This document shows, one piece after another, positions 24,048-61,161 of a DNA stretch of 64,000 nt (position 1 is its first letter; each line of letters opens with the position of its first letter). The translations under genes and the position numbers were made by a program. The notes beneath the pieces were generated by a model. The model was not told the DNA's origin. It ran no database searches and worked only from the letters and a program-made list of their open reading frames with translations. Source of the stretch: Chamaelirium japonicum (lineage: Eukaryota > Streptophyta > Magnoliopsida > Liliales > Melanthiaceae). The stretch is taken from contig OX393550.1 of NCBI GenBank assembly GCA_947650365.1, positions 55,596,069-55,660,068 of the forward strand. Direction: 5' to 3'.

Positions 24048-25257
24048 TGATGCAGACGAGCCTACTACGTGCAGTTTTTCTACAGCTGATGGCGTATTTT
24101 CATCTGTGCCGGAGGTCCAGGAACCCGATCGTCGATCCGTCTGCATCAGTGGAAAGCTTAATCGAAGCCCCACAGTTTTGGTTTTTACTTTATTTCGATC
24201 CGACCAGCGGATCGTTAGTTATTTCAGTTTTTATTTCTGGTTTGGGTAGGTGCGAGCCATGTTCGCATCCGGTTCGAGCCACAGATGCCGAACTGACTCG
24301 TTTCTGTGTTTACTTTTTAGCCGTAGGATGTTAGGTTAGAATAGATCTCAATGGATGAGATTCGAAGGGGAATTAAAAACCAAAAAAATCCTAACCTAAG
24401 CCCACCCGACCGGCCTTCTCTCTCTCTCCCGCGAACATGCCCCGCGCCCCCTCTCTCACCCGTGCGTCTCTCTCTCTCTCTCTACCCGACCGGCCCCTCT
24501 CTCTCTTCTTTCCTTTCCTTTTGTGGCTTTTGTTGTTTCATCCCCTTTAAATCCCCACAAACCCTAATTGAGAGGGGAGATGAAATTGAAATTGAAACCC
24601 TAGATTGAAGAAGCGTGTGCGCTTGTTCGGTTATCCCTTCCGAAGAAATCCTCTCGGCTTCTTGTCTACTTCTTCCTTCCGCACGCTTCTATCCCGTTGC
24701 TCCACTACTCGTCTTCGGCTTCACGGAAGATCGACGTGAAGTTCTTCATCTTCAAGATCCCTCGTCTCGGCTTCTTCACCACGTCTTCTGAGCCACGCCT
24801 CCCCTTCCGCGCCTTTCATCTGCAACAACGGAGTATCGGAAAGCTGCCGGCATTGACCAAAGCACGGTGAGATCGATCCTCGATAATTTTCATGTGATAA
24901 CCTGCTTTCTTGCAACCGGCCTTATTGCTGATTTCATTGTAGGAACCCTAAAATTCTGTTTTCCCGAGAGTCTCATCCGTTAGGGTTTATTCGTTTAGAT
25001 CTTTATTTGTTCTTGAGACATTGGCATATTATTTGAGATAGTGATTGTTATCATTGCTGAAATTCAGTCCTTATAATCTGAAATTATTGTTCTTATTGTC
25101 AGTTTTATGATCTCATTGACTTAAATCTGATTGGGGATTGAATGAATGTTGAATAGTGATTCTAAACATTGCTGAAATTTGTTTACATATGCTGAAATCT
25201 GATGTTTAATGTTCTAAATTCTGCACTTGGACTTATTTGAGCATACGCATCGCATCA
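24048..25257 (+). repeat. 5' LTR of the gag-protease element
   Basis: Starts TGATGCAGACGAGCC and ends CGCATCGCATCA, 1210 bases. It contains pyrimidine-rich (TC)n patches around 24415-24510, a probable 5' untranslated feature. Confidence 0.95.
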
Positions 25258-25260
25258 AGT

Positions 25261-25274
25261 TGGTATCAGAGCGC
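25261..25274 (+). other. Primer-binding site
   Basis: TGGTATCAGAGCGC, the initiator-methionine tRNA complement, three bases after the 5' LTR. Confidence 0.9.
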
Positions 25275-27950: not shown

Positions 27951-29155
27951 TGATGCAGACGAGCCTACTACGTGCAGTTTTTCTACAGCTGATGGCGTAT
28001 TTTAATCCGTGCCGGAGATCCAGGAACCCGATCGTCGATCCGTCTGCATCAGTGGAAAGCTTAATCGAAGCCCCACAGTTTTGGTTTTTACTTTATTTCG
28101 ATCCGACCAGCGGATCGTTAGTTATTTCAGTTTTTATTTCTGGTTTGGGTAGGTGCGAGCCATGTTCGCATCCGGTTCGAGCCACAGATGTCGAACTGAC
28201 TCGTTTCTGTGTTTACTTTTTAGCCGTAGGATGTTAGGTTAGAATAGATCTCAATGGATGAGATTCGAAGGGGAATTAAAAACCAAAAAAATCCTAACCT
28301 AAGCCCACCCGACCGGCCTTCTCTCTCTCTCCCGCGAACATGCCCCGCGCCCCCTCTCTCACCCGCGCGTCTCTCTCTCTCTCTACCCGACCGGCCCCTC
28401 TCTCTCTTCTTTCCTTTCCTTTTGTGGCTTTTGTTGTTTCATCCCCTTTAAATCCCCACAAACCCTAATTGAGAGGGGAGATGAAATTGAAATTGAAACC
28501 CTAGATTGAAGAAGCGTGTGCGCTTGTTCGGTTATCCCTTCCGAAGAAATCCTCTCGGCTTCTTGTCTACTTCTTCCTTCCGCACGCTTCTATCCCGTCG
28601 CTCCACTACTCGTCTTCGGCTTCACGGAAGATCGACGTAAAGTTCATCTTCAAGATCCCTCGTCTCGGCTTCTTCACCACGTCTTCTGAGCCACGCCTCC
28701 CCTTCCGCGCCTTTCATCTGCAACAACGGAGTATCGGAAAGCTGCCGGCATTGACCAAAGCACGGTGAGATCGATCCTCGATAATTTTCATGTGATAACC
28801 TGCTTTCTTGCAACCGGCCCTATTGCTGATTTCATTGTAGGAACCCTAAAATTCTGTTTTCCCGAGAGTCTCATCCGTTAGGGTTTATTCGTTTAGATCT
28901 TTATTTGTTCTTGAGACATTGGCATATTATTTGAGATAGTGATTGTTATCATTGCTGAAATTCAGTCCTTATAATCTGAAATTATTGTTCTTATTGTCAG
29001 TTTTATGATCTCATTGACTTAAATCTGATTGGGGATTGAATGAATGTTGAATAGTGATTCTAAACATTGCTGAAATTTGTTTACATATGCTGAAATCTGA
29101 TGTTTAATGTTCTAAATTCTGCACTTGGACTTATTTGAGCATACGCATCGCATCA
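27951..29155 (+). repeat. 3' LTR of the gag-protease element
   Basis: 1205 bases, nearly identical to the 5' LTR, followed by the GTTTA target duplication. Confidence 0.95.
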
Positions 29156-29776
29156 GTTTACAAGGGTCATTGACTGCGATTCATACATCACACAGGTCGG
29201 ATTATTGCTTGGCGACTCGGCTAACAGCAACATAACAAAGACAAGAGAAATAGAGTAGTCCTGGCCGAGTTTTTTGGTTTCAGGTGTTAGGCCTTGATCG
29301 ACAGATGAGGGTAATGCTGAACCGAGGGTCGACTTGGTTTGCTCGGCCACCGAGCACAAGGCACGATAGCCGCACCGAGGAGAGGGGCAGGGTCGATTCC
29401 TCAGAGGAAGGAAAAGGGTCTCGGATCAGTCCACATGAGTAGCCGGCTGCTGCACCAGTACTCCGTCGCTGTCAATTGACAACGAAGGTGTAATAGAGGG
29501 GTCGGTGGTGGCAGGTGGTCGGGTTGGTGGTTGGGTGGTCGATGGGGTCTAGCCTGGCTGGGTCGGGCCTCGTCGATTGCACAGCCGCTGGCAACGTGGC
29601 TGATGGCCATGGCCGTCTTGACGGCAAACGAAAGGGGGGTCGGACTTGCCTCACAAAAACCAGAAAAAGAAAAGGGACGAAGAGTGGGGAACGACTGACC
29701 TGGTCGGCTCCTCCTCGACCTTCCCGGCATTGGCTGCTCCCTTTCTCCTTACTCAGGCCGCTTTGTGCAGGACACC

Positions 29777-42854: not shown

Positions 42855-43158
42855 GGACCACTGTAGCAGCTATAGTGATTTTACTGTAGAAGCTATAGTG
42901 AAATCACTGTAGCAACTATAGTGATTTTGTCGTAGCTGCTAAAAAAATATGTTGCTACAATGAAAATACTGTATAAAAAAAACTCAATTTTGTAGCAATA
43001 TTACTCACACTGTAGCAGCTATTGTGAAATTACTATAGCAGCTATAGTGATTTCACCGTGGCTGCGAAAACGTTGCTACAAGAAAATCGTTATAGCAAAG
43101 TACTCATTTTGATAGTAATAGTACTTATTTAATCGAGTATTATTTGCATTGAGTATAT
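42855..43158. repeat. CACTGTAGCAGCTATAGTGA palindromic short repeats
   Basis: At least six degenerate copies of a self-complementary word (for example 'cactgtagcaactatagtga', 'actatagcagctatagtga'). It ends with 'gagtattatttgcattgagt' next to the LTR at 43159; related sequence is found at 61372-61800. Confidence 0.75.
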
Positions 43159-43460
43159 GTGGAGGAGGATTACGACTGTCGCACGATCCCCCTCCAACAA
43201 TCGATTGAAGATTTAACCCTTCAGGATGTGGCACGCTGTGAAGCGCTGAGCTGTCGTGTACCGAGCTATCACATAGACACTGTAGAGTAGAGAGAGTTGA
43301 CACAGGATGTGATGATGAAGTTCGAACGAAGCCTACGTCTCCGTGCAGTAAGACACATGCAACCTTTGAATCCACTATCTCTGAAGATGTTGAGGCACTT
43401 TCGACAGGCCGAGAAGTACTTACACAGGTGAACAGAGGGTGGAGAAGGAGTTTGAAAACC
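43159..43460 (-). repeat. 3' LTR of the gag-only element
   Basis: Matches 60253-60560 over about 300 bases, for example 'ggattacgactgtcg', 'acaggatgtgatgatgaag' and 'ttacacaggtgaacagaggg'. The similarity stops at 'gaaaacc', taken as the LTR edge. Moderate divergence between the two LTRs suggests an older insertion than the nested Copia. Confidence 0.75.
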
Positions 43461-43469
43461 TCCTGCCAA

Positions 43470-43830
43470 GGGTTGGCCGGGTGTGTGCTGGACGACCATC
43501 GCATGAGTCTGCCGACCCGCTGTCCGGGGCCGACCGTCGCACTCACCGACCCCCTATCAGGGGCCGACTGGGTACGCGTTTGCTGATCCGTTGTCCGTGC
43601 TGACCATCGCACCCGCCGACCCCCTGCCAAGGGCCGGCGAGAGGTGTGCCCGTAGTTACCCCCTCCCAGCTAGCCAGGTGATAACCTAGTTGACTGGACT
43701 CCATGGTGCAAATATGGGTTATCGATGTTCAGGTAGGTTTTGATGGGCGTTGGAGAGAATCTGCCGATCCCCTGCCAGGGGTCGACCACTGCGCCCACCA
43801 ACCCCCTGCCAAGGGAATTTTGCAGTAAGC
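43470..43830. repeat. Degenerate repeats of 'ccgaccccctgccaggggcc' type
   Basis: At least five loose copies around 43485-43830 ('gccgacccgctgtccggggc', 'ccccctatcaggggccgac', 'cccctgccaggggtcgacc'). Most can form a short CCCC...GGGG stem. Confidence 0.65.
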
Positions 43831-43965
43831 CCCCCAAAGGGGTCTGGATTTGCAGTAATCCCTCCAAAAAGGGGAGGGGGCTGTTTTGCAGTAAGCCCCC
43901 CCAAAAGGGGGCTGTTTTACAATAAGCCCCCCCTGGCGGGGGCTGATTTAGTGCAACCCCCCTTG
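43815..43965. repeat. Four ~33-bp units with C-run/G-run stems
   Basis: Units beginning 'tttgcagtaagcccccc' (near 43818, 43849, 43885) and 'ttttacaataagcccccc' (near 43915), each followed by 'aaagggg' or 'gcggggg'. Each unit can fold into a C/G stem-loop. Confidence 0.8.
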
Positions 43966-44159
43966 TCGGAGAAGGAGGAGAAAGTCAGAGGGAGGGAGAG
44001 TGCTCAACCTCCCCTGCTATTTTCGATGTCGTCGAAGGAGGAGACCGGGGGTTAGCAAGGCTCGACCCCCGACCGCTGTCATCGTCGTTGAAGGTGGAGA
44101 TCAGGGGGGAGCAAGGCTCGACTCCCTTATGTCGTTGCCATCACCGTCGAAGGAGAGTG

Positions 44160-44690
44160 ATGTTCGGTGACAATCTTTGAGAGCCGAAGCAGTGAACGCT
44201 TCGAACCTTGTCTGCGAGTGCCGAAGAGGGGTCGTTCAAGCTTCATCGTCAAATACTGAGGGCAGGGCCTCGGGCTTCGTCTTTAAGTGATGAAGTGGAG
44301 GCTTCGAACTTTGTCGTCGAATGCCCAAACGATGCGAAGCACCTCAGACGAATCACCTTGGCCTTTGTCAGCAAGCGCCCTCGCACTATCTGCGAGCGCC
44401 GAGGTGGTGTGAATCACCTCGGACTTTGTCGGCAAGCGCCAAGGTGGTGCGAAGCACCTCGGACTCTACCGGTGAGCGCCGAAGCGGTGCGAAGCACCTT
44501 GCACTGTGTGATGAGGCGGTGAAAAGCATTTTGGACTTTGTCTGCGAGCGCCGAGGCAGTGCGGAGCGCCTTGAACTTTTTGAGTGCCCGTGAACACTAA
44601 AGGCATAGCCTTGGGTTTTGTTTGGATACTGAGGCGGCAAAGCTTGCCTCAGAATTTTTCTTCGAATGCTAAGGGCGGAGCCTTGGGCTT
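44160..44690. repeat. ~46-48-bp tandem units
   Basis: Copies such as 'gccgaggtggtgtgaatcac' + 'ctcgg' near 44399 and 44447 fold into CCGAGGTG...CACCTCGG stems. They look like half-units of the 95-base array that follows. Confidence 0.75.
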
Positions 44691-47077
44691 AGATGGTGTC
44701 GACGTCTCAGGCTTTGTCTGGAGCCGAGGCGACGGAGCCTGCCTCGGGCTTTGCTTTTGAATGCCAAGGTGTCACCTTGGGCCGAGACAATATTGCCGTC
44801 TCGGGCTTTGTCAGACGCCGAGGTGGCAAAGCCTGCCTCAGATTTTGTCTTCGACTGCAAAGGTTGTCTCCTTGGGCCAAAACGATGTCGACATCTCAGG
44901 CTTTGTCAGGCGCTGAAGCGGGGAAGTCTACCTCAGACTTTGTCTTAGACTGCCAAGGCTATCTCCTTGGGTCGAGACGATGTTGACATCTCGGGCTTTG
45001 TCAGGCGTCGAGGCAAGGAAGCTTGTCTCGGACTTTATCTTCAACTGCCAAGGTTGTTTCCTTAGGCCGATCGAGACAATGTCGATGTCTCGGGCTTCAT
45101 CAGGCACCGACGCGGGGAAGCCTGCCTCGGACTTTATCTTCAATGACCAAGTTGTCTCCTTGGGCTGAGATGATGTCGACGTCTATGGCTTCGTCAGGCG
45201 CCAAGACGGGGAAGCCTGTCTCGGACTTTGTCTTCGATTACCAAGGTTGTCTTCTTGGACCGAGACGATGTTGATATCTCGGGCTTCGTCAGGCACCGAG
45301 GTAGGGAAATATGCCTCGGACTTTGTCTTAGACTGCCAAGGTTGTCTCATTGGGCCGAGACCATGTCGATGTCTTGGGCTTTGTTAGGTACCGAAGCGGT
45401 GAAGCCTGCCTCGGACTTTGTCTTCGATTGTCAAGGGTTGTCTCCTTGGGCTGAGATGATGTCGACGTCTCGGGCTTTGCCGGGCACCGAGGCGGCAAAG
45501 CCTACCTCGAACTTTGTCTTCGACAGCCAAGGTTTTCTCCGTGGGCCGAGACGATATCGACGTCTTGGGCTTCGTCAGGCGCTGAGGCGGGAAAGCCTGC
45601 CTTGGATTTTGTTTTAGACTGCTAAGGCTATCTCCGTGGGCTGAGATGATGTCGACGTCTCGAGCTTCATCAAGCACCGAGGCGACGAAGTATGTGTCGG
45701 ACTTTGTCTTTGATTGCCAAGGTTGTCTCATTGGGCCAAGACAATGTCGACATCTTGGGCTTCGTCAGGTGCTGAGTCAGAGAAGCCTGCCTCGGACTTT
45801 GTCTTAGACTGCCAAGGCTGTCTCCTTGGTCCGAGATGATATCGACGTCTTAGTTCGTCAGGCACCGAGGCAGCGAAGTCTGCCTCAAACTTTCTCTTTG
45901 ACTGCTAAGTTTCTCTCCTTGGGCCGAGATGATGTCGATGTCTTGGGATTCATCAGGCATCGAAGCGGCTTAGCCTGCCTCTGACTTTGTCTTAGACTGC
46001 CAAGGCTATTTCCTTTGGTCAAGATGATATTGGCGTCTTGGGCTTCGTCAGGCGTCAAAACGTCGAAGCCTGCCTCAGACTTTCTTCGACTGCCAAGGTT
46101 GTCTACTTCGGCCGAGACAATGTTGATGTCTCGGGCTTCGTCAGGCACACAGGTGGTGAAGCCTGCCTCGAACTTTTACTTCGACTACCAAGGTTGCCAC
46201 CTTGGGGCAAGACAATGTTGATGTTTCGGACTTCGTCTGGTACCGAGGCGGCGGAGCCTGCCTCGGGCTTTGCTTTCGAATATCAAGGTTGTCACCTTGG
46301 GCCAAGACAATGTCATCGTCTTGGGCTTTTTCTGGTACCGAGGCGGCAAAGTCTACCTCGGGCTTTGTTTTCGATTGTCAAGGCTGTCACCTTGGGTTGA
46401 GACTATGCTGTCGTCTCAGGCTTTGGAGGGTACCGAGGTAGCGATGTCTGCTTCGGACTTTGCTTTTGAATGCCTAGGCTATCACCTTGGGCCGAGATAA
46501 TGTCGTTGTCTAGGGCTTTGTCTGGTGCTGAGGCAGCGGAGTCTGCCTCGGGCTTTGCTTTCGAATGCCAAGGTTGTCACCTTAGCCCGTGACAATGTCG
46601 ATGTCTCAAGCTTCGTCTTGTGCCGAGGTGGCAGAGCTTGTCTCGGGCTTTGCTTTCAAATGTCAAGGCTGTCACCTTAGACCGAGACAATGTCGTCGTC
46701 TAGGACTTTGTCTGGTGTCGAGGCGGTCGAGTTTGCCTCGGGCTTTTCTTTCGAATGCCAAGGCTGTCACCTTGGGCTGAGATGATGCCGTTGTCTCGGG
46801 CTTTGGAGGGTACCGAGATGGCAATGCCTGCCTTGGACTTTGCTTTGGAATGACAAGGCCATCACCTTAGGCCGAGACAATGTTGTCATCTCGGACTTTG
46901 TTTGGTACCGAGGTGGCGAAGTCTGCCTCGAGCTTTGCTTTTGAATGTCAAGGCTGTCACCTTGGGCCGAGACGATGCCACAGTCTCGGGCTTTGGAGGG
47001 TGCCGAGGTGGCAAAGCCTGCCTCAGAATTTGTCTTTTGATGCCAAGGCTGTATCCTTGGACCGAGATGATGCCGTC
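44690..47077. repeat. ~95-bp tandem array, about 25 units
   Basis: Spacing between equivalent points is 94-99 bases (for example 44890, 44985, 45084, 45178). Each unit holds three short inverted repeats: CCGAGGC...GCCTCGG, CCAAGG...CCTTGG and CCGAGACG...CGTCTCGG. Copies differ by perhaps 10-20%. About two more units continue at 57138-57300 beyond the Copia insertion. Frames such as MSTSRALSG... across it are not genes. Confidence 0.9.
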
Positions 47078-49405
47078 TGTTGGGTTAAATCCATGGTAGA
47101 GGCCCGCAGCGGAAGCAAAGTGAAGGTCCGAGGACCGTAGGCGATGTGCGTTACATATCAAAATTTTTATCGAAACGATCTACATATGCGTGTATGAATC
47201 TAGCATGGCAACTACGCGAACCCCTAACGACGATCTAACGTGAAAGAACAATCTAGCATGTATGCATGTTCTAATTATGTTAGATCTACTTGTTAGAGAT
47301 CATACATGCGTGCGGAATCTTTCACCGCGACAAATTTCTTCTTTGTCGATGGAGACGGGCTACGGATCTGCTCGATATAGCTTCGGTGCGACGGCCATAA
47401 CTTTCTGTTCCGAACTCCGATTGGGCTGAAATTTGGACTGCAGGTAGCCAACTTCGAGACGCAACTTTTGCAACAAGTTTCATGTCGTTTGGAATTCTGT
47501 AGCTCCCGGAATCAAAAAAACAATGCTGATTTTCTATGCAGATTCTGGACAGCAAAAGGTTGCGGGAGACGCCTTCTAGTTCACCCGATCTCACATTATG
47601 CACGGCACCTCGTCGATGGATCTCTGAGTGCCTCCATACGACGAGCCTTCTCCTTCTACGAAACACAACGTGAGGAAGACGAGTCGCCATCCAATGGCGC
47701 AAGCGAGGGAGAGAGAGACGAGAGAGGAGATGCGAAGAGAGGAGAGGGGGCGGCTAGGGTTTCCCCATGCCATGGCCGGCCCTAGGGCTTGCCCATGCTC
47801 CATAATTTCGTCCCCCCCTCTCTCCCTATACATATATATAGCCGGCCTATCCATATGGATAAGGACAGTTTGGATAAGGATGACTGATTCAATCCTTTTC
47901 CCTATATATCTCTTATTTATCTCTATCTTTTCCTTGGTTTTGAAAACGGTCAAAACCAGCCCATTTTCTGCGCCTAATGACCGGCCCTTTCATCGGAGGC
48001 AGCAACCTCCTGAAACCAATAGGGCCGGCCTTGATCAGTCTCTCAACACTTAGGGTCGGCCCCCTTAGTGCATAGTGACGCATGGTATGACCAAAACGCC
48101 CTTATGACACTAGTTGGCCGTTCCTCGTGTACGAGACTTTGCAAGGCACACATAAGTGAAGTGCACCAGTGATTTCACTATTCTCTGAGGTTCCCTTTGG
48201 GTTCCCCTAGTGAAGTCAACTAGTCAACTCGCAACATGTCCCGGTGCATCGCACACATGTGGCAAAGTCCACTTATGACAAGGAATTGCTACATGCGTCT
48301 CTGCATTAACCTAGGGTTTCCCCTTAGTGCACACACGTAGCTACGCATCTACCGTGCACTAGTGCGAAGCACTCACGGAGTGTAGGCTTGGACTTCTCGC
48401 TTCCTCTAACTACGTTCTGTGTTTCGACGAGATGGTATAAGAACCATACATAATGTCGATAAGGTGGAACCTTCAGGTTCCAGGGTTCATGGCTTCCAAC
48501 TCAGACTCGATCGACACACTACCCGAGTGTACCATCGATCCTCTGAGTCCGAGTTAACCTGCGTAGCCACCCAGAGTGCGACACAGGCTGCACTCCAATT
48601 TCCCCGGACTTACTATGTTCTCCCTTATACCCCTGCTCTCCGCTTAGTATGGTAAACTCGCTGTCCCTCCACTGGTGCCATGACGCAACTCGAGCGGTGG
48701 AGAATACCGTCAGACTCGAGTGCTCATATGACTCGGTTCCTTCCAGGTTGACCATGTACATCGTACCTCCGATAACTCTGCCGAGTAACCGGATCCGTCA
48801 CCAGTCGAACTTATGACCACCTGGCCAGGGTTTAATACGACGTAGGTCAGACCAAGGAACGCACCTCCCGTTAGGGGTGTGGATAGCCTGCAGGAGTGAC
48901 ATGCTGATGCAATGCCAGCCGGGTAACCCAGTACACCGTGGTTTTGGATCACTGCATCCGGATCCTCACACATTGGTGCGCCAAAGCACCACACAACTGG
49001 TTAGTCCACCAGACATGGCTCCTCAGGGTTTAGGACCGTTTTACCCTAAGCAAAAACACGGTTTAGTGCACCGGTGTCTGCTCACCGATCTGTGCACCGT
49101 GTTGGTTCCGTTCGGCCACAGACACTGTGCCTGGTAATGACTGTGGTGGAGACACCCACGCTCTGTCATCCCAACAGCTTATCCTGATAGGGCGACCAAC
49201 CCTAATCAGAGCTGCGAGCGCATTTAGGTTACATGGGACCAATCCCTTGAGTCTCCCACTCAAGTGGATTACCATGTAGCCATGGCTCTCTGTTCTGTAA
49301 TCAGAACACGTACTAAGGTACGTACCAATATGCATTCCTATACTATCAACCATACATAGCTAAACTATAGGTTTTTACGAGCTGTAGACCTCACCAATTC
49401 TAACA
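47078..49405 (-). repeat. Copia 3' LTR
   Basis: 2328 bases, TGTTGGGTTAAATCC...CCAATTCTAACA in plus orientation. Several apparent frames inside (for example 47628-48053) recur in the other LTR and are not genes. Confidence 0.95.
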
Positions 49406-49420
49406 ATCTCCCACTAGGTC
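49406..49420 (-). other. Copia polypurine tract
   Basis: The minus strand reads CCTAGTGGGAGAT directly before the 3' LTR, the usual Copia form. Confidence 0.85.
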
Positions 49421-49659
49421 TAACGAGGAATAACGGTGTTGAGCTCTGTAGCTTCTACATGCTGCCCAAAAGCCTTTGCAGGAATTCCCTAAAGGAATTG
49501 GCAACATTGTCTGTAGATTCCACCTCAGTATCGCTACTTGCATTTCCTCCTATAACTGTCAGATCAAGTGGAGTTTGTACTTGATGGGTTTCCCCTAATG
49601 GTGGTGCCTAGTCTTCTTGGACTTTGCTTACCGCTCTTCTGTTGGCAAGAACAGATACC

Positions 49660-50700
49660 TGAGCCTCTGGTACGCGTCCCAAGTTCTGTAAGAACTTCCT
49701 AAGCCTTACCACCTGATATACTACCTCGCACGCAACAACGTGCTAAGCCTCTATGGTAGAGTCTGTGATGCACTCTTGCTTCACACTCTACCAACTACCG
49801 CTTCTAATCCCAAGATAAAAATAATCCCTGAAACCGATTCTCTGGTACACACATCTGACACCAAAGTCAGATCCTGTGTGTCCAATCGATATCAGGACAT
49901 GTGAAGTGCAAGCTAACTCACAATCCTTACTTAATGAGGATTTCTGAGTATACCCTTCACATCGGTCCAAAGATCTAGACCCGGGTTCGACTGAAACCGA
50001 CCCATCTTCCTGCTGCGCAATAGATATCTAGCCTCGTAAACCGAATCTGGCTAGAATCTTATCTTCATGCGTAGCCTGTGACAGTAAGAGAATCTTGCTC
50101 TGGTTATCTCGAGTTACCTTGATTCCCAAAGCATAACTCGCCTCACTAGGGTCTTTCACATCGAATTGTGATGACTACAAATCTTTATCGTAAACAATAT
50201 TCCTACGTCATTTTTAATCAGTAGAATATCGTTAACGTAAAGTACTAAATATACCCTTGTAGCTATTTCACCTTTCCTGTACCATCTTGGTTTATCCTCA
50301 TTCTGATCAAATCCGTGTTAGCGGATTCCCTTGATCAAAATAGATATTCCAACCTGGATGCTTGCATCAGTCCATAAATGGACCGTTGCAACTTGCATTC
50401 CAAATCTTCCTAACCTACTGACACAAAGCTTGGGGCTACATCATCCATATGTCCTTTCTAAATTCCCGTTAGGGAATAACTGTCTTGACATCCATCAACC
50501 AGATCTCCCAACTATAATGGGCTGTGATGGATTAAGAGGATCCGTTATAGACTTAGGCATAGCTACCAGTGAGATGGTTTTGACATAGTCAATCCCTTCT
50601 CCTTTGGTAACTAATCTAGCTACTTAAGTCTTAACCGGGTGCTCTTCTTATACACCTCCTACATCCCGAAGGGTGATAGTGCTATAAGTGTCAAGACTGT
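49660..50700 (-). mobile_element. Copia RT-RNase H region (fossil)
   Basis: Minus-strand words: CKLQRSIYGL-type sequence near 50350-50400 and LYVNDILLIKNDVG (a variant of the YVDD catalytic box) near 50190-50260. RNase H-type remnants lie nearer the left LTR. Broken. Confidence 0.8.
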
Positions 50701-51449
50701 TCCAAGGGACATTGATGCAAGCTTGCCTCCATGGTCTTTTGTCAGTCAGAGCTGTCGGAAGCTCCCACTACTTCTTCGTAGCTCTAGGGATCATCCTCCT
50801 GAAACTCTGGATTAACTATCAAAGTTTCTCCATAGTATCCTTCAGGAGCTCTGATGGTCCCACAACGATGAGGTGGTGGTGGTACAAAGGAAGCTCCCAC
50901 TACTTCTTCGTAGCTCTAGGGATCATCCTCCTGAAACTCTGGATTAACTATCGAAGTTTCTCCATAGTATCTTTCAGGAGCTCTGATGGTCCCACAACGA
51001 CGAAGTGGTGGTGGTACAAAAGTGAATTGTTTCTACAGTGTCTGGTATACTAGTTTCTTGTATCATCTACTCCCACTACGTTTTCAAATGCGCACTCTCT
51101 ACCAGTATCCAGTAGTTCACCCAGAACTACCTTACCGGTAAACTTATGGTCTATAATATAATTCTGATCTAGGTAGATGGTATTCGTAGAAACGATTACC
51201 TTCAAAACCTCAAGATCATATAACAGTCCACCTTATGCCTCCTAAGGGTAACCTACAAACAGATATACCTGGAACTACATCTCCATCTCATCCCTCTTGT
51301 CCTTTTGCACAAGTGCAGGACAACCCTATATCTCGAGACTCTATAGTGTCAGCTTTCGCTTAGACCATAGCTCTCTATAGGTCTGAGGCACTGATCTAGA
51401 TGAGAGAGAGTTTCAGATATAAGCTACTATTTTAAGGTACAACCCCACC

Positions 51450-51680
51450 AAAGGGTGGGTAGTACATTTGACAATATTCATCATACTACGGACCATGTCA
51501 AACAGAGTCCGATTCCTTCTCTCGAAGACTTCATTCTGACGTGTCATCCTTGGAGCATTTAACTGGGAGATAATCCCATGCTCCTTTAGGATCCTATGGA
51601 ACTCGTCTGATAGTGACTTATTCCTTCGATTAAATCGAAGAGTCTTCTATTGTCTAGACGCTCTTGGAACCATAGACGTC
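51450..51680 (-). mobile_element. Copia integrase region (fossil)
   Basis: Minus-strand words FHRILKEHGIISQLNAP, ERRNRTLFDMVRSMMNI are the conserved C-terminal part of the Copia integrase core. Broken. Confidence 0.85.
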
Positions 51681-52439
51681 AAAATAACTAACACCAATAC
51701 CTTAGTGGCCCTTTTAGTTATTCTGTCTTCCAGATAACACTCATAGGTTAGAAGGATCTCCGATGAATCTGTGAACAGAAACTCAGCCTTCTTTTACCTC
51801 TGAATTTATCTGAGGCAGAATATCTAAATAAGAGGGGTCACAAATGGGATAGCTTCTCCGAAGGATTTAGATGAATTTCAATTAGACGCTGCAGCTGTCA
51901 TGAAATCTATTTCCGAATTAGGATTAAATACAAAGAGATTTTTCTGATCTATTCCTCTAACTATGAAGCTATCTATTCAGTTTAAGATACACACTCACGG
52001 TGCTGTCTAAAACTAAAAAACTTCATTTACCAAGAAGGAAACAGAACTATATCTCTAAAAACAGAATCCGTATTTCGGAAAACTAAGACAATCATACCTA
52101 ACATCTTCCGCAGCGGCTTATGGCATCAGTACCTATGTTAGGATTACGTCACTATAAAGTAGCCTTCTGCTTTTCTTGAATCTTTGTAGATCCGAAGTCT
52201 ACATTCCAAGGAGCATAAGAGCTGCTACTAGATAGCGACTTTACTCCTAACATCCTGAGGCCATACTCAATCTTCAAATACCCCCTATTCTCGCCAAAAC
52301 AGAAACACTTCCGTCTTTAGCGTTACTAGACTTAAGAGTCCACACCAGTTTCTGCACTATAATAGTTTTCGATCTCTGATAAGTTACTTCCTTAGGTTCT
52401 TCTAAAGAAGGCCTAGGCTAAGCACTAAAGGCTTTGCCT

Positions 52440-52727
52440 TTAATCTTGATCCCATCCTTTGTCTCTTGAAAATCTCCTTAGAAGTTCTGTGTTTATCATC
52501 TCTAACTTGTTAAAGCTAAAGTCTCTGATAACGCCTTCGAAGGTTCCAGACAAGGATGCAAGACAGACGTCTTCCACCACCTCGTCATCCGGTACTATGT
52601 CTTTGGAATCTAGTTCGATCTGGAACTCAAAGATGTGTTCCCGAACAAGCATACCCTCAGACATCTCGGTACCGACAAGTATCTTAGTGGAAAAGCAATG
52701 AGTCGACTGACTTCGCCTTCCAGACAT
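52440..52727 (-). mobile_element. Copia gag fragment (fossil)
   Basis: A 95-codon minus-strand stretch contains EGMLVREHIFEFQIELDSKD and FSFNKLEMINTELLRRF, matching the UBN2-type gag of plant Copia elements ('...VREHV...NMNKLE...LPELL'). Confidence 0.7.
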
Positions 52728-52729
52728 CT

Positions 52730-54788
52730 AATGTAAGTAAAACTTAATTAGAGAAGACCCGGCATATCTCTGACTCGCTTCTAAAGAGTTGTCCGCAAGT
52801 CTGCTATAACATAGCACTTGCACATCTCCTTAGACTCTCGCCAATCTTCATATACTCTAGTTAGTGCCCTAGTGATATCTGGACCCATTAGGTCTAATAC
52901 AGGGATACTTAGATTACATGCCAATGTACGTTTTAACTACCCTATGCATAAGCTAAAGAAAGTGCTTTGGCTCTACGTAGTTAGAGACCCGATAACTGAT
53001 TCTCTTATGGGATAGCGGATAGGGGAACTATATGGTTGAATGAAAACGAATACAAAATAACTTATTTTATGGATTTTTAAAATAAGCTAATTATATCCAA
53101 ATGTCAGCGCTACCCTCACAGCGAAGACACCTCTATGGATTAATTAACCATGTATGTAAGATCTCGGAATCGACTACTACACCTGCCCTAGGGGGCATCA
53201 TGCAGCGTCAATCCGCTTACACGAGCCTTTCCTTGACCCTATCCAAATCTGCCAACTAAGGGCTTTGATGGACCATGGTTGTCCTTTTGGCCAGTGCCAC
53301 GTGATCCCCATTGTGCAAGCAACAGATGCCTCACATCCACTTCGGATGCTTACCCACAAGCCTAAGCAATTACGGCATGGGAGTTCATGCGGCCCCCACT
53401 AGGGTGGGATAAAAAGCCCTTCTCTCCTGGCCCCGTAACCGCCATATCCTGAAGGAGATCGCTAAGTTATCTGGCATGGAAAAACATAACCCTCACCCTA
53501 GGGGGTGTCGAGCTATGCCCTTCCACCCAGACACAAAGCAGTTGGTTGTGGAGGCCAGAGGATCTCGACGAGTCCTCTTACACATCCCTTATTATAGTTG
53601 AGGGTTATTTAATGCAAGTATGAGTGTACACTAAGGTCACGACAACCTATACACTAGACCCTGGTCATACCATGCTCCCACTAGCATTTCAAGCCTTTTG
53701 CGAAGCATTAATCGATCTCGGAATATCATAGTCCCTGCCTCGAGTGGATTTCTCCACTCAAGGGTCACATTACATATCCCAAGAACGTCGATGTTCTGCA
53801 AACCTGGCTATCACGTTAATGCTCTGGAGCCTAGCCTAAGGTCAGACTGACAGGAAAGGTTTTCCACTACCATGGCGCCTCGCTTATAAATTTGACGAAT
53901 GATGTCATAGTAGAATTCCAACTCATTCTAGATTTCGATGCTTGCCAAATAGGCACACCCGACTAATCGGGTGTTGACCTAATGGGGGCATAACCAAATA
54001 TGAGGAATTCATGCTATCATCAAGGGTCAATTAAATAATAGGCGTCACTAGTGGAATCCTATCCTAATAAGGTCGCTAGGACCCGAGGGGAAAGGGCATC
54101 CCTCTAACACAGATAATCAAATTATTGCATCGGGGTTCTCTACAGAAATATAAAGAACTACTGAAAGAAATAAGCACACAACTGAATCAAGTTCAGGGTC
54201 CGACCCCTGAACCTGACTGGCACAGCGCAGGCTCTCTGTCTCCTTCGCAAGGTCCTCGATCCGGTGCAAGCCTCTGTATACGATCTCCTGACGCTTTCGC
54301 CCTTTGCCGTCATCGTGTACGCTTCGCCAGATCGCCATCGTCCTCCAAGGCTCCGCTCATTTTCCCGGTGGTGGATCTCCACGGCAAGTCCTCCTCTTCA
54401 ATCTGTAACTGAAAAAGATCTAGTACGCTTCGAGCAAGTGCTCGCTCGTACACAATGTCCTAGAAAGAAAAGGAAAAAAAAAACCTAGCAAAAGCCTGGG
54501 AATCAAGGGTGGTAAATCTTCACCTCTTGCCCGACTATGGCTCTAAAATCTATCCACACACAGAAGAAAAAACATCCAGACAAAATCGCTAACACGGGGT
54601 CCGACCCCCGGTAGCAAGCAATCACATATCCAGAATAATTTTAGAAGCGGTGCCCTGCAAGAACGATTCATAGAACATACAAAATATATACTATGCATGA
54701 TCTACTCGCAGAACCCCGATGGCGGCACATACTATTCATGCGCGCACACGACGGTTTCATGAAAAACATGAAACGCACACCACTAGCG
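52730..54788 (-). mobile_element. Copia gag start and 5' leader (fossil)
   Basis: Non-coding leader from about 53200 to 54788 matches 1-1603 of the left Copia element; the gag N-terminal part lies to its left. No intact frame. Confidence 0.7.
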
Positions 54789-54802
54789 TGACTCTGATAC
54801 CA
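54789..54802 (-). other. Copia primer-binding site
   Basis: The minus strand reads TGGTATCAGAGTC beside the right LTR, a methionine-tRNA type primer site. Confidence 0.85.
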
Positions 54803-54804
54803 AT

Positions 54805-57132
54805 TGTTGGGTTAAATCCATGGTAGAGGCCCGCAGCGGAAGCAAAGTGAAGGTCCGAGGACCGTAGGCGGTGTGCGTTACATATCAAAATTTTTATCGA
54901 AACGATCTACATATGCGTGTATGAATCTAGCATGGCAACTACGCGAACCCCTAACGACGATCTAACGTGAAAGAACAATCTAGCATGTATGCATGTTCTA
55001 ATTATGTTAGATCTACTTGTTAGAGATCATACCTGCGTGCGGAATCTTTCACCGCGACAAATTTCTTCTTTGTCGATGGAGACGGGCTACGGATCTGCTC
55101 GATATTGCTTCGGTGCGACGGCCATAACTTTCTTCTCCGAACTCCGATTGGGCTGAAATTTGGACTGCAGGTAGCCAACTTCGAGACGCACCTTTTGCAA
55201 CAAGTTTCATATCGTTTGGACTTCGGTAGCTCCCGGAATCACAAAAACAACGCTGATTTTCTGTGCAGATTCTGGACAGTAAAAGGTTGCGGGAGACGCC
55301 TTCTAGTTCACCCGATCTCACATGATGCACGGCACCTCGTCGATAGATCTCTGAGTGCCTCTATATGACGAGCCTTCTCCTTCTACGAAACACAACGTGA
55401 GGAAGACGAGTCGCCATCCAATGGCGCAAGCGAGGGAGAGAGAGACGAGATAGGAGATGCGAAGAGAGGAGAGGGGGCGGCTAGGGTTTCCCCATGCCAT
55501 GGCCGGCCCTAGGGCTTGCCCATGCTCCATAATTTTGTCCCCCCCTCTCTCCCTATGCATATATATAGCCGGCCTATCCATATGGATAAGGACAGTTTGG
55601 ATAAGGATGACTGATTCAATCCTTTTCCCTATATATCTCTTCTTTATCTCTATCTTTTCCTTGGTTTTGAAAACGGTCAAAACCAGCCCGTTTTCTGCGC
55701 CTAATGACCGGCCCTTTTATCGTAGGTAGCAACCTCCTGAAACCAATAGGGCCGGCCTTGATCAGTCTCTCAACACTTAGGGTCGGCCCCCTTAGTGCAT
55801 AGTGACGCATGGTATGACCAAAACGCCCTTATGACACTAGTTGGCCGTTCCTCGTGTACGAGACTTTGCAAGGCACACATAAGTGAAGTGCACCAGTGAT
55901 TTCACTATTCTCTGAGGTTCCCTTAGGGTTCCCCTAGTGAAGTCAACTAGTCAACTCGCAACATGTCCCGGTGCATCGCACCCATGTGGCAAAGTCCACT
56001 TATGACAAGGAATTGCTACATGCGTCTCTGCACTAACCTAGGGTTTCCCCTTAGTGCACACACGTAGCTACGCATCTACCGTGCACTAGTGCGAAGCACT
56101 CATGGAGCGTAGGCTTGGACTTCTCGCTTCCTCTAACTACGTTCTGTGTTTCGACGAGATGGTATAAGAACCGTACATAATGTCGATAAGGTGGAACCTT
56201 CAGGGACCAGGGTTCATGGCTTCCAACTCAGACTCGATCGGCACACTACCCGAGTGTACCATCGATCCTCTGAGTCCGAGTTAACCTGTGTAGCCACCCA
56301 GAGTGCGACGCAGGCTGCACTCCAATCCCCCCGGACTTACTATGTTCTCCCTTATACCCCTGCTCTCCGCTTAGTATGGTAAACTCGCTGTCCCTCCACT
56401 GGTGCCATGACGCAACTCGAGCGGTGGAGAATACCGTTAGACTCGAGTGCTCATATGACTCGGTTCCTTCCAGGTTGACCACATACATCGTACCTCCGAT
56501 AACTCTGCCGAGTAACCGGATCCGTCACCAGTCGAACTGATGACCACCTGGCCAGGGTTTAATACGATGTAGGTCAGACCAAGGAACGCACCTCCCGTTA
56601 GGGGTGTGGATAGCCTGCAGGAGTGACATGCTGATGCAACGCCAGCCGGGTAACCCAGTACACCGTGGTTTTGGATCACTGCATCCGGATCCTCACACAT
56701 TGGTGCACCAAAGCACCACACAACTGGTTAGTCCACCAGACATGGCTCCTCAGGGTTTAGGATCGTTTTACCCTAAGCAGAAACACGGTTTAGTGCACCG
56801 GTGTCTGCTCACCGATCTGTGCACCGTGTTGGTTCCGTTCGGCCACAGACACTGTGCCTGGTAATGACCGTGGTAGAGACACCCACGCTCTGTCATCCCA
56901 ACATCTTATCCTGATAGGGCGACCAACCCTAATCAGAGCTGCGAACGTATTTAGGTTATATGGGACCAATCCCTTGAGTCTCCCACTCAAGTGGATTACC
57001 ATGTAGCCATGGCTCTCTGTTCTGTAATCAGAACACGTACTAAGGTACGTAACAATATGCATTCCTATACTATCAACCATACATTGCTAAACTATAGGTT
57101 TTTACGAGCTGTAGACCTCACCAATTCTAACA
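54805..57132 (-). repeat. Copia 5' LTR
   Basis: 2328 bases, same length as the left LTR and about 97-98% identical by eye. Confidence 0.95.
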
Positions 57133-57137
57133 CCGTC

Positions 57138-57300
57138 GTCTTGGGCTTTGGAGGGTGCCGAGGTGGCGAAGCCTGCCTCGGACTTAGTATTTTGATGCCA
57201 AGGTTATTTCCTTGGGCTGAGATGACGTCAACATCTTGGGTTTTATTGGGTGTCGAAGAGGCATAGCCTAGCTTTAGACTTTGTCTTTGACTGTTAAGGG
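57138..57300. repeat. Right-hand remainder of the 95-bp array
   Basis: About two further units ('gccgaggtggcgaagcctgc', 'ccaaggttatttccttgg') continue the array interrupted at 47077. Confidence 0.85.
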
Positions 57301-57340
57301 TGGAGCCTCGAATTGGTTGATCAATGGGGGTTAGAATTCA

Positions 57341-58470
57341 GAGTACTCAGCATAATGCCTTTGTATTGATCAGATTTAGGCGAAGCATCGTTTCAGTCGG
57401 ACCTACATCTCAAACACGTAACTTTGTTCGTTGCAGGTTAGTCGGTCGTGTCGCAATACAAATCGAACTAACTGTGGCGAGGCACTAGTGCATATGTCCT
57501 TATGTTACAATGGAAGCATGTGCGATGCCAAAGATTTGGAGTACTCAGTGTAGTGCCTTTGTATTGGTCGAACTTAGGTGAAGCGCCATTTCTGTCGGAC
57601 CTATGTCTCAGGCACGTAGCTTTGTACCGTTGTATGTTAGTCAGCCGTGTTGCAACACGAACCAAACTAACTATTGCGAGGCACTAGTGTATGTGTCCTT
57701 ACATGACAACAGGTGCATGTGCGATGCCAAAGTTTCAGAGTACTTAGTGTAGTGCCCTTATATCAGTCAGACTTAGGCGAAGCACCGTTTTCAATTGGAC
57801 CTAGATCTCAGGCACCTAGCTTTGTACCGCTGTAGGTTAGTTGGCTGTGTCGCAATGTGAATTAAACTAACTATGGCAAGGCACTAGTGCATGTGTCCTT
57901 ATATGACAACGAGAGCATGAGTGGCGCCAAAGATTCATATTACTCAGCGTAGTGCCTTTGTATCAGCTGGACTTAGGCGAAGTGCTATTTTAGTAAGACC
58001 TACATCTCAAGCACATAGTTTTGCACCGTTGCAGGTTAGTCGGTCGTGTCGTAACGTGAACCAAACTAACTGTGGCGAGGCACTAGTGCATGTGTCATTA
58101 AATGACAATAGGAGCATGTGCTACGCCAAATATTCGAAGTACTAAGTAAAGTGCCTTTGTATCGGTCAGACTTAGGCAAAGTGCCATTTTAGTCAGACCT
58201 TTGTCTCAGGAACGTAGCTTTGTACCGTTGCAAGTTAGCCGGTCGTGTCGTAACGCGAAACGAACTAACTATGGCAAGGCACTAGTGTATGTGTCCTTAC
58301 ACGACAACGGGAGCATGTGCGACACTAAAGATTCAGAGTACTCAGCATAGTGTTATTGTATCGGTCGAACTTAGGCTAAGCGTCGTTTCAATCAGACCTA
58401 AGTCTTAGGCACGTTGCTTTGGATCGTTGCAGGCTAGTCGGCCTTGTCGTAATGTGAATCGAACTAATTG
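57341..58470. repeat. 199-bp tandem array, about six units
   Basis: The word 'tactcagcgtagtgccttt' recurs at about 57343, 57541, 57741, 57941, 58140 and 58339, a period of 198-200 bases. Other unit words are 'ggcactagtgcatgtgtcct' and 'ggttagtcggtcgtgtcg'. It lies between gag and the 95-base array of the gag-only element. Confidence 0.9.
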
Positions 58471-58559
58471 TGTCATTGAGTAGAAGTTGAGATAAAATTT
58501 GATAGTACTCGATAAAACTTGAAGCAGTTGCCATTTTATTGATAACTCGGAAGATCTTA

Positions 58560-60220
58560 CATCATAGATTTCAGATAAGCGACATTATGAATTGTTAATA
58601 ATCTGAGCTTTCTACTCTGATCGATCGATGGGATGCTTCCCCTTGATGTCCATGGTCTTCTGAGGCTCTGCAGGTCTATCGCCTACCCGCCTTGGTCTCT
58701 TGGAGGCTCCATCTTCCTAAGCCTGAGAGTTGTGAGCTTGAGCTGTTGATCTCATTGGCTCCTTATCAAATAGATGCTTCTTAAGATCATGTCTCTTGTG
58801 CGCGATCTGATCATTCTCTACCTCGATCTCCTTTTGAATTCAATCGAATAATACTCCGATGGAGGCAGGTGGGTTGTGGTTGAGTTCATTGTAGATGTGA
58901 AGGTCAAAACGTAGGGTGTTCTGGAATGCCATCATGATCGCTTCGTCGTCGAGTTAACGTCTGGAGAGCATTGCGTGCTCATTCCGAAACCTCCGAGTGA
59001 ACTCTCGAAGGGTTTCATTCGAGCCCATCCGTAGTTGGTAAAGGGAGTCTAGCTTCTTCTCCGGCTTGAGGTTTAGCCGATAGTGCTGGACGAAGAGGTC
59101 CGCCGGTCCCCGAATAGGCTTATGGAGCTTGTTGAGAGATTGTGATATCAATCTAACGATATGTCATCCAGGCTGCCGGCAAAGGTGTGGCATAGAACCT
59201 AGTTGTCATTGTCGTGTGGCGTCACTTCCTGCTTGAAGGCAAGGACATGTAGTGTTGGATCTCCTGTGAGGCACTTGAACTTAGGGAGAGACGGAGTTCT
59301 CTAGCTTCGAGGAAACTAAGCTCGAAAAATTTGTCGATGAAGTGGGTCTTCGAAGGTGTAGTCGCTCCTAAGGTAGTCTCGTTGTTTAGAGAGGCGTCTC
59401 AGAGGAAGGGGAGGTAGATGGGACTTAGAAACACTTATTTCTGGCGATGTTCGACCAGAATTCGATTGTTGTTGAGATACAGCCGAGCTCTGAAGTGATG
59501 TCCTTCATTTCAAACCTCCTTCCGACTGCAAGGGTTGGAGGATGATTCAGAGCAGAGAGGCTCGGGTTGACGAGTTGGCTTATTGAGACGCTCCCAAACT
59601 GTTTGTCTAGGAGGGAGAGGCGAGGGTTTCCTCGAAGAGGGCTTGAGGGACCGTTGGGAGGTATCGATGACGGATCGTTTGGAAGGAGCGGGGGACAGGT
59701 CAACTAGCCGACGGATGTCTGCTCCATCGCTGATGCTGGCGGCTGACCGTGGGAGGTCAACTCCTACTTCTACGATAATCTATCGGAGGGAGTCTCTCTT
59801 CACCATAAGATCAGCGTTCTGCTTCATGAGAGTGGAGAGTTAAAAGTCCTCTGCCGTAATTTGATACGTCGCTTGAGGGTCGGTGGCGGGTATATAAGAT
59901 GTGCGCTATCTCCAAACGTTGAGGAGTCGTGTCAACAAGCTGAGGAGACCACCGAGGTTGAGCCTGAGCGGTGCGTTCAACCGATGGTCGACTCTTATAA
60001 TTAATAACAGGTTGCTGCTCAGGGTGTTGGCTTGTTAGAAACCAACGACTCACTGAGCGAGTCGGATGTTGAGTGTCTAGATATATGTTACTTCCCTCCG
60101 GCTGGTCTATTGGTCTTGTCTTCGTCATTCTATGATAGCGATGGAGACAGACGGATTGCTCGGGTAATCGATGATTGTTGCTTGACCGAAGAAGCTAGGA
60201 AGCACGAAGATCACTAGTTG
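58560..60220 (-). mobile_element. gag region of the gag-only element (fossil)
   Basis: Minus-strand capsid-type sequence at 58954-59151 reads NKLHKPIRGPADLFVQHYRL and ETLREFTRRFRNEHAML, the retrotransposon gag domain. MMAFQNTLRFDLHIYNE-type words follow near 58880-58940. N-terminal gag-like frames lie at about 59425-60128. Broken several times. No protease, RT or integrase words follow before the 199-base repeats. Confidence 0.75.
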
Positions 60221-60224
60221 TAGG

Positions 60225-60252
60225 ATAAGATCCCACAAACGACGCCAAACTA
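60225..60252 (-). other. Primer-binding site of the gag-only element
   Basis: The minus strand reads TTTGGCGTCGTTTGTGGGAT just inside the LTR, of the same type as the Tat element at 4376. Confidence 0.75.
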
Positions 60253-60566
60253 TGGGAGAGGATTACGACCGTCGTACGGTCCCCCTCCAACAGTCGATTG
60301 AAGGTTTAAACCTTCAAGAGATGTGGCACGATGAGCTGTCGTGTACAGAGCTGACACGCAGACACTGTAGAGTAGAGAGAGAGAGAGAGAAAAAGAGAGA
60401 GATAATTGACACAGGATGTGATGATGAAGTTTGGTCGAAGCTTATATCTCCATGCGGTAAGACACAATCTTTGAATCCACTATCTTTGAAGATGTTAAGT
60501 CACTTTCGATAGGCCGAGAAGTGCTTACACAGGTGAACAGAGGGTGGAGAAGGAGTCTGAAAACCA
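60253..60566 (-). repeat. 5' LTR of the gag-only element
   Basis: About 314 bases from TGGGAGAGGATTACGACC to the point (gaaaacca) where similarity with 43159-43460 stops. It contains a (GA)n run at 60376-60402. Confidence 0.7.
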
Positions 60567-60640
60567 GAAGGCTCGAGGAGCTCTGGAAAATAGAAAGTGA
60601 AAATCTGGTCTGCAATCCCTGATCTGAAACATTTATCGGG

Positions 60641-61161
<521 letters not shown>

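What the first reader, a model, noticed from the sequence alone, without database searches (positions are those of the whole stretch)
43159..60566. Gag-only LTR element whose pol is replaced by four kinds of hairpin-forming tandem arrays
Seen: in the element's own orientation, LTR, primer site and gag are followed by six 199-bp units, about 27 units of 95 bp, several ~48-bp units, and ~33-bp C/G units, then the LTR. Nearly all of the shorter units are built on inverted repeats. Known: Tat-lineage Ty3/gypsy elements often carry tandem repeats in the 3' untranslated region, and gag-only (TR-GAG) elements exist. Inference: this is a Tat-derived non-autonomous element whose genomic RNA would be an unusually long chain of stem-loops, possibly a packaging, dimerisation or stability signal, or a seed for new satellite DNA.
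Basis: partly seen in the sequence, partly recalled or inferred. Interest (0 to 1): 0.75.

Follow-up and report, generated by a model that had tools for sequence, protein, structure and literature searches.

The report
Pol-less Retand retrotransposon with tandem arrays
This looks like an old, broken copy of a plant jumping gene that lost its enzyme genes but kept stretches of repeated DNA near its end; relatives with the enzymes exist in the same genome, and this type of element is already known.

Summary
On the minus strand there are an LTR, a primer-site region, decayed gag, 199-bp units, 95-bp units, ~40-bp units, GC-rich ~31-36-bp units and an LTR. Corrections: (1) a separate 10-kb LTR element (47078-57132, target duplication GACGG) sits inside the 95-bp array; (2) the flagged LTRs are mainly R/U5, relatives have ~590-650-bp LTRs; (3) the 199-bp array does not fold better than shuffles. 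The layout is a family trait: among scored genome hits 199->95 was collinear in 11 of 11 neighbouring pairs and 95->40 in 5 of 5; a younger copy (C1:124147985-124153892, TSD GTTAC) has gag-199-95-(40)-36-LTR. Relatives with an integrase end share the LTR, polypurine tract, 199-bp array and 36-bp array, and carry an antisense Transposase_28 ORF, a Retand trait. So the arrays did not replace pol: pol and the antisense ORF are absent, and the 95/40-bp arrays lie where that ORF lies in the relatives. The 95- and 40-bp arrays fold better than shuffles, but apart from one column pair the 95-bp units show no covariation. No scored array exceeded 5.2 kb. Pol-deleted, array-bearing Ogre elements are published; this is a new member of that kind.

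The parts
60251..60642 (-). 5' LTR remnant (R/U5 and the stretch next to the promoter); U3 missing, an (AT)n tract starts at 60645
   Evidence: Alignment with 13 other LTR copies; 80% to the 3' LTR
60226..60250 (-). primer-binding-site region (GTTTGGCGTCGTTTGTGGGAT...)
   Evidence: Position directly after the LTR end; tRNA match not tested
58480..60128 (-). gag remnant, frames broken; the zinc-knuckle part seen in L033, L024 and L034 is missing
   Evidence: open frames of relatives L033 and L036 hit Retrotrans_gag at E=8e-8 and 2e-5
57336..58479 (-). 199-bp tandem array, 5.7 units
   Evidence: TRF; shared with integrase-bearing relatives
57133..57335 (-). first ~2 units of the 95-bp array and its spacer
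47078..57132 (.). nested, unrelated LTR element (2.3-kb LTRs, degenerate interior); not part of the described element
   Evidence: LTRs 97.6%; TG...CA ends and TSD GACGG; 39 other scored copies of an interior piece at 96-98%
44631..47077 (-). rest of the 95-bp array, 25.7 units, each with three inverted repeats
   Evidence: TRF period 40 at 44395-44499; similarity to the 40-bp array of L034
43818..43933 (-). period-31 GC-rich units (3.6 copies), so far seen only in this copy
   Evidence: TRF; no match in 11 relative loci checked
43484..43815 (-). GC-rich stretch similar to the 33-36-bp arrays of relatives, on both sides of the polypurine tract
   Evidence: Matches in L043, L046, L024, L036, L042, L026, L039 (7 of 11 loci checked)
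43655..43667 (-). polypurine tract GGGAGGGGG + TAAC
   Evidence: Same motif directly before the 3' LTR in L043 and L046
43158..43654 (-). 3' LTR; R/U5 at 43158-43460, U3 unrecognisable and similar to the 33-36-bp units

Best explanation
The window holds an old copy of a family of non-autonomous Retand-lineage (Tat, Ty3/gypsy) elements. The family arose when a Retand element lost everything between gag and the start of its 3' array (protease to integrase) and its antisense Transposase_28 ORF, keeping LTR, primer site, gag, the 199-bp array, the ~33-36-bp array, polypurine tract and LTR. The 95- and 40-bp arrays occupy the place of the antisense ORF and may have arisen within the deleted lineage. 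Copies presumably moved by using the enzymes of pol-bearing relatives with the same ends (inferred). Array lengths probably change by template switching or slippage during reverse transcription (inferred; proposed by others for Tat elements). A younger LTR element later landed in the 95-bp array of this copy.
For: Same order in copies L034, L036, L041, L043 as far as each was read. Genome hits: 199->95 11 of 11 pairs same strand and order, 8 of the 11 gaps 58-97 bp; 95->40 5 of 5; LTR->199 distance 1773 and 1774 bp, about 1.77 kb in the window. L043 copy complete, TSD GTTAC; among 40 scored hits its 5' LTR is the best match of its 3' LTR, at 96%. Relatives L044/L045: integrase end before the 199-bp array (SH3_Tf2-1 E=0.002, below cut-off); antisense 732-aa ORF in L044 with Transposase_28 E=2e-4, below cut-off; downstream of L045 a 36-bp array and an LTR 88.6% identical to L043's; 199->ORF 161 bp in 6 of 7 pairs; same-family LTR 6.92-6.96 kb before the ORF in 3 elements, 15.2 kb in a fourth. 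Transposase_28 is given as a Retand trait in PMC6317226 (passages) and PMC11963269 (abstract, passages, section 11 part 1).
Against: No RT or RNase H of a pol-bearing relative was read, so the lineage rests on a sub-cut-off Transposase_28 match in one ORF (two L045 pieces gave none) and on layout. Trans-mobilisation was not observed. Two relatives (L024, L033) keep gag and protease and show no 199/95 arrays in line with that gag, so there are several deletion forms. 20 of the 40 scored 199-bp loci were not assigned to either type. Of the 10 best other LTR loci, 5 had no clear element part in the fetched flanks.
Confidence: 0.82

Rival explanations
1. The arrays are a selected RNA signal: a chain of stem-loops for packaging, dimerisation or stability of the element's genome.
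For: 95- and 40-bp arrays fold better than shuffles (L043 95 bp mean z -3.8; L034 40 bp -2.8); the 36-bp array of L046 does so on the sense strand only (-2.0 against +1.9, 3 tiles) and the 40-bp array of L034 more on the sense strand (-2.8 against -1.8). One 95-bp stem pair changes A-T to G-C in 14 of 54 units; cells paired and covariation score exceed shuffles (1 and 2 of 500). In 40-bp units G-T slightly exceeds A-C (74-80 against 61-63); also in the 9 L034/L036 95-bp units (30 against 16).
Against: 95-bp units: pairs with double changes 12 against 12.1 shuffled; without the one A-T/G-C pair the excess is gone (doubly changed cells 27 against 27.1, score 107 of 500 shuffles); wobbles not favoured over mispairs overall, 99 against 127; antisense strand folds almost as well (-2.0 against -2.6 in the window, -3.5 against -3.8 in L043); unit number varies about 4 to 28; 95- and 40-bp units gave no match in L044, L045 or L046.
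Confidence: 0.08
2. The 95/40-bp arrays are an unrelated satellite that the element happened to span or capture.
For: The 199- and 95-bp queries each had over a thousand first-look candidates in the genome.
Against: Fixed order and strand relative to gag, 199-bp array and LTR in independent loci; no scored array above 5.2 kb.
Confidence: 0.03
3. The 199-bp array is the functional part, for example a cis-acting site or a preferred crossover point between co-packaged genomes, and the other arrays are passengers.
For: It is shared in phase by gag-only and integrase-bearing elements; units are 91.9% alike between L043 and L044 against 92.9% and 94.1% within each, while the stretch just before the array aligns at 69% over 115 columns and LTRs at 88.6%.
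Against: No excess folding in the window or L043, -1.4 in L044; recent common descent of the array alone could give the same numbers; the flank comparison is short, includes about 10 bases of the array, and gave no alignment for L034 or L036.
Confidence: 0.15

Closest known systems
Pol-deleted Ogre elements carrying FabTR-54/FabTR-57 arrays in Lathyrus sativus (PMC7004042; passages read)
   Same: Gag near 3'-region tandem arrays, pol lost by large deletion, attributed to non-autonomous elements
   Different: Ogre, not Retand, lineage; there arrays of this class also expanded into true satellites, not seen here among scored hits
[quoted passage not shown] abstract, passages and section 11 part 1 read)
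   Same: Pol-bearing relatives here have tandem arrays and an antisense Transposase_28 ORF between pol and 3' LTR; LTR size in the reported range
   Different: Window family has neither pol nor that ORF and has four kinds of unit; no cluster in that paper's Table 1 lacks protease, RNase H and integrase together, and the table lists at most three arrays
TR-GAG elements (definition recalled; only the search listing was seen)
   Same: LTR, primer site, gag only, polypurine tract
   Different: Longer than TR-GAGs as recalled (L043 copy 5.9 kb) and derived from a Retand-type relative in the same genome
Hypervariable 3' region of Tat elements as a source of satellites (Macas 2009; not seen itself, only as cited in PMC7004042 and PMC11963269)
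   Same: Arrays of several unrelated unit lengths downstream of the coding region
   Different: No expanded satellite seen among scored hits here

Membership tests
Retand lineage (Tat, Ty3/gypsy) | Transposase_28 ORF, antisense, between pol and 3' LTR (typical, not universal) | tested here: met
   In relative L044 (E=2e-4, below curated cut-off), not in the window family, where 95/40-bp arrays lie instead
Retand lineage (Tat, Ty3/gypsy) | RT phylogeny and archaeal RNase H between RNase H and integrase | not tested
[quoted passage not shown]
   199-bp and 36-bp arrays in L045/L046
LTR retrotransposon | Paired LTRs, polypurine tract, 5-bp target duplication | tested here: met
   L043 copy: LTR pair, TSD GTTAC, polypurine tract. 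In the window copy no TSD can be read, as the 5' end is lost
LTR retrotransposon | Primer site complementary to a tRNA | not tested
   TGG begins about 3 bases after the LTR; no tRNA comparison made
TR-GAG / gag-only non-autonomous element | gag present, no pol between the LTRs | tested here: met
   LTR->199 distance of about 1.77 kb; gag runs directly into the 199-bp array in L036; no RT/integrase motif in L034, L036, L041
TR-GAG / gag-only non-autonomous element | intact gag reading frame in active copies | tested here: inconclusive
Satellite DNA | Long free-standing arrays | tested here: not met
   Among about 40 scored loci per query the longest arrays were 1.7 kb (199), 5.2 kb (95/98), 4.7 kb (40); only the best candidates were scored

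The most novel reading that the evidence does not exclude
The 199-bp array is a shared exchange point between autonomous and gag-only Retand genomes. Template switching in co-packaged RNAs keeps its units alike across the two element types while flanking sequence drifts apart, and lets the deleted family swap 3' modules (antisense ORF for 95/40-bp arrays).
Probability: 0.18. Interest if true: 0.55.

Novelty: new member of a known kind. Interest (0 to 1): 0.28.

Why it matters
It gives a clear case, within one genome, of a gag-only Retand-type family next to integrase-bearing relatives, with fixed array order but very variable unit number. That makes it possible to test whether 3' tandem arrays grow by template switching between co-packaged genomes. 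It does not change what is known about such elements in principle.

Tried and rejected
Rejected: arrays as an unrelated satellite (collinearity); arrays as replacement of pol; all arrays hairpin-forming; RNA-structure selection in 95-bp units. Tried without result: a six-frame search of L021-L042 and the window for short RT/protease/integrase motifs, recalled from memory, found none in L034, L036, L041 and a protease motif in L033; it found no RT next to this family's gag. Coding content of the nested element stayed unclear (Retrotran_gag_2 E=0.087; longest frames in 7 copies at most 180 aa), so its superfamily is open. A first folding script timed out. One search failed after extracting units; one search finished that count. 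The paper search on hairpins and dimerisation gave nothing that looked relevant in the listing. L024's 334-aa frame gave no Pfam hit; that it keeps protease rests on 76% similarity to the gag-protease stretch of L033.

Rows dropped before counts: 95-bp hits with under 80 matched positions (9 of 63); 199-bp hits under 170 columns (number not printed); 40-bp hits not spanning positions 6-31 (number not printed).

One search showed that the window's period-31 units are not the units shared with relatives (parts and text mended). One search showed that the covariation excess hangs on one pair.
Full report
Setting. The window is G000:C2:55596069-55660068 of a 1.52-Gb assembly in 3253 contigs, of plant type judging by its elements.

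Anatomy. Reading the minus strand: 5' LTR remnant 60642-60251; primer-site region; gag debris to 58480; 199-bp array 58479-57336; start of a 95-bp array 57335-57133; a nested element 57132-47078; rest of the 95-bp array 47077-44631; ~40-bp units 44584-44308; period-31 units 43933-43818; a GC-rich stretch like relatives' 33-36-bp arrays 43815-43484; within it the polypurine tract 43667-43655; 3' LTR to 43158. The nested element has LTRs of 2328 bp at 97.6% identity, TG...CA ends and the 5-bp duplication GACGG; the joined flanks read as one unbroken 95-bp unit. It is therefore a later, separate insertion.

LTRs. Aligning both window LTRs with 13 other LTR copies shows that most family LTRs begin TGTGGGTGCAAAAT, have ~40-bp GC-rich repeats in U3, a TATAAATA-like box, and end CCCACA. 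The window 5' LTR loses this homology where an (AT)n tract begins. The window 3' LTR starts after the expected polypurine tract, but its U3 is not recognisable and is similar to the 33-36-bp units. The two R/U5 parts are 80% identical, so this is an old copy.

Other copies. I fetched both sides of the 10 best LTR hits other than the window (10 of 40 scored hits). 3 of the 10 had gag next to the LTR (L024, L034, L036); 2 of these (L034, L036) went on to 199-95-40 in order. One (L026) had 199 and 33-type sequence on the internal side of an LTR, one (L039) had 33-type units before its LTR, and 5 had no clear part of the element in reach (one of the 5, L021, has a short weak match to the 40-48-bp region). 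L041, fetched from a 199-bp hit, has gag-199-95. L043 has gag, 4.7 units of 199, about 11 of 95-98 bp, about one 40-bp unit, about 12 of 36 bp, then a full LTR. Its 5' LTR lies at C1:124147985-124148616, 96% identical over its main piece, and the target duplication is GTTAC. Unit numbers vary: 199 bp 3.7-7.6; 95 bp about 4 to 28; 40 bp about 1 to 50.

Genome-wide order without fetching. Of 40 scored 199-bp loci and 79 scored 95-bp loci (two queries), 11 pairs lie within 5 kb. All 11 are on the same strand with 199 first; 8 of the 11 gaps are 58-97 bp and the others are 245, 724 and 787. The window pair is not among them, because the nested element lies between. 95->40: 5 of 5 pairs in the same order. 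LTR->199 was 1773 and 1774 bp in the two elements where both were scored. Array spans: 199 bp 0.6-1.7 kb; 95/98 bp 0.4-5.2 kb; 40 bp 0.2-4.7 kb. Each search scored only 40 candidates (of 1538, 1258, 1213 and 200 for the 199-bp, two 95-bp and the 40-bp queries) and two listings were cut, so a large satellite elsewhere is not excluded.

Integrase-bearing relatives. In L044 and L045 the 199-bp array (7.6 and 6.3 units) begins about 93 bp after a frame ending ...GKFAPNWEGPYIV...WNASHLKKFYQ-stop, which looks like a Ty3/gypsy integrase C-terminus (SH3_Tf2-1 E=0.002, below cut-off). It is followed by a stretch of ~2.9 kb, 96% alike in the two, with long antisense frames; the 732-aa frame of L044 carries Transposase_28 (E=2e-4, below cut-off), two pieces of L045 did not. 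L046, downstream of L045, adds a 36-bp array (15.9 units), the same polypurine tract and an LTR 88.6% identical to L043's. A search with 1 kb of the ORF region gave 55 first-look candidates; 40 were scored, and 5 besides L044 itself are 99-100% identical, so this form moved recently. 7 of the 40 scored 199-bp loci are followed by this ORF, 6 at 161 bp and one at 327. LTRs of the family stand 6.92-6.96 kb before the ORF in 3 elements and 15.2 kb in a fourth. Of the 40 scored 199-bp loci, 13 are of the 95-bp type (11, plus the window and L041), 7 of the ORF type and 20 unassigned.

Other deletion forms. L033 (minus-strand element) has gag, zinc knuckle and protease in one frame (Retrotrans_gag E=8e-8, gag-asp_proteas E=1.4e-6); L024 matches that stretch at 76% and then runs into 33-type units. 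Neither continues into RT in what was read. So pol may have been lost more than once in this group (inference).

Structure test. Mean folding z against 30 dinucleotide shuffles in 200-base tiles, sense strand (antisense in brackets): window 95 bp -2.6 (-2.0), 12 tiles; L043 95 bp -3.8 (-3.5), 5; L034 40 bp -2.8 (-1.8), 5; window 40 bp -1.4 (-1.3), 2; window 33-bp stretch -2.1 (-1.8), 3; L043 33 bp -1.6 (-0.8), 3; L046 36 bp -2.0 (+1.9), 3; L043 LTR -2.0 (-1.8), 2; window 199 bp +0.15 (-0.2), 5; L043 199 bp 0.0 (-0.8), 4; L044 199 bp -1.4 (-1.4), 7; gag -0.7 (-0.2), 8; antisense-ORF region +0.3 (+0.1), 14. On 54 aligned 95-bp units a three-hairpin structure that I drew from the alignment pairs in 84.0% of cells (shuffled 82.9, 1 of 500 as high). 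Pairs with double changes were 12 (12.1) and further pair types 33 (32.8); the covariation score was 0.189 (0.171; 2 of 500), above all slid versions (0.031-0.115). Leaving out the single pair of columns 36-53, doubly changed cells are 27 (27.1) and the score 0.166 (0.161; 107 of 500). G-T wobbles (99) do not exceed A-C mispairs (127), nor in the younger L043/L041 units (24 against 43) or the window (45 against 68); in the 9 L034/L036 units they do (30 against 16). In 78 40-bp units wobbles slightly exceed mispairs (74-80 against 61-63). So the hairpins are real as sequence, but selection on them as RNA is not shown; the 40- and 36-bp arrays are the least tested.

Exchange. 199-bp units of L043 (gag-only) and L044 are 91.9% alike, close to the 92.9% and 94.1% within each, while the stretch just before the array aligns at 69% over 115 columns (L043) and 70% over 107 (L041), and not at all for L034 and L036; the LTRs are 88.6% alike. 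This suggests, but does not show, exchange within the array.

Literature. [quoted passage not shown] PMC11963269 (abstract, passages and section 11 part 1 read) describes the long pol-3'LTR region of Retand with arrays and antisense Transposase_28 ORFs; no cluster in its Table 1 lacks protease, RNase H and integrase together. PMC6317226 (passages read) gives Transposase_28 in 23% of Retand elements and notes arrays in large non-chromovirus elements.

Verdict. A gag-only deletion derivative of a Retand-type element with ancestral and derived 3' arrays: a new member of a known kind.

Noticed in passing
window 47078-57132: Nested LTR element with 2.3-kb LTRs (97.6%), TSD GACGG, degenerate interior; 39 other scored copies of an interior piece at 96-98%.
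   Followed up: partly
window 50757-51020: A 132-bp direct duplication (96%) inside the nested element.
   Followed up: no
window 60645-60816: An (AT)n then (AG)n tract begins about where the family's TATAAATA-like box should be, as if the microsatellite grew from it.
   Followed up: partly
window 43484-43654: 33-36-bp-type sequence lies downstream of the polypurine tract, where U3 should be; unexplained, perhaps a recombinant LTR.
   Followed up: partly
L024 5327-9755: Weak gag match followed by a different set of arrays: 107 bp (7.3 units), 67 bp (19.4 units, related to the 95-bp unit), 58 bp (11.4 units, with inverted repeats); perhaps a second relative.
   Followed up: no
L033 1-1195: Array of a 19-bp palindromic motif (TTTGACCGATCGGTCAAAA) with a 215-bp higher-order period, 98% matches.
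   Followed up: no
G000:C11:17594102-17599255: Longest 95/98-bp array among scored hits (5.2 kb); a place to look for a nascent satellite.
   Followed up: no
window 24048-25261 and 27951-29158: Pair of 1.2-kb direct repeats at 98.8%, perhaps a young LTR pair with a short interior.
   Followed up: no
L044 1900-2900 and one search hits: This stretch of the antisense-ORF region is 99-100% identical at five other dispersed loci, so the integrase-bearing relative was active recently.
   Followed up: partly
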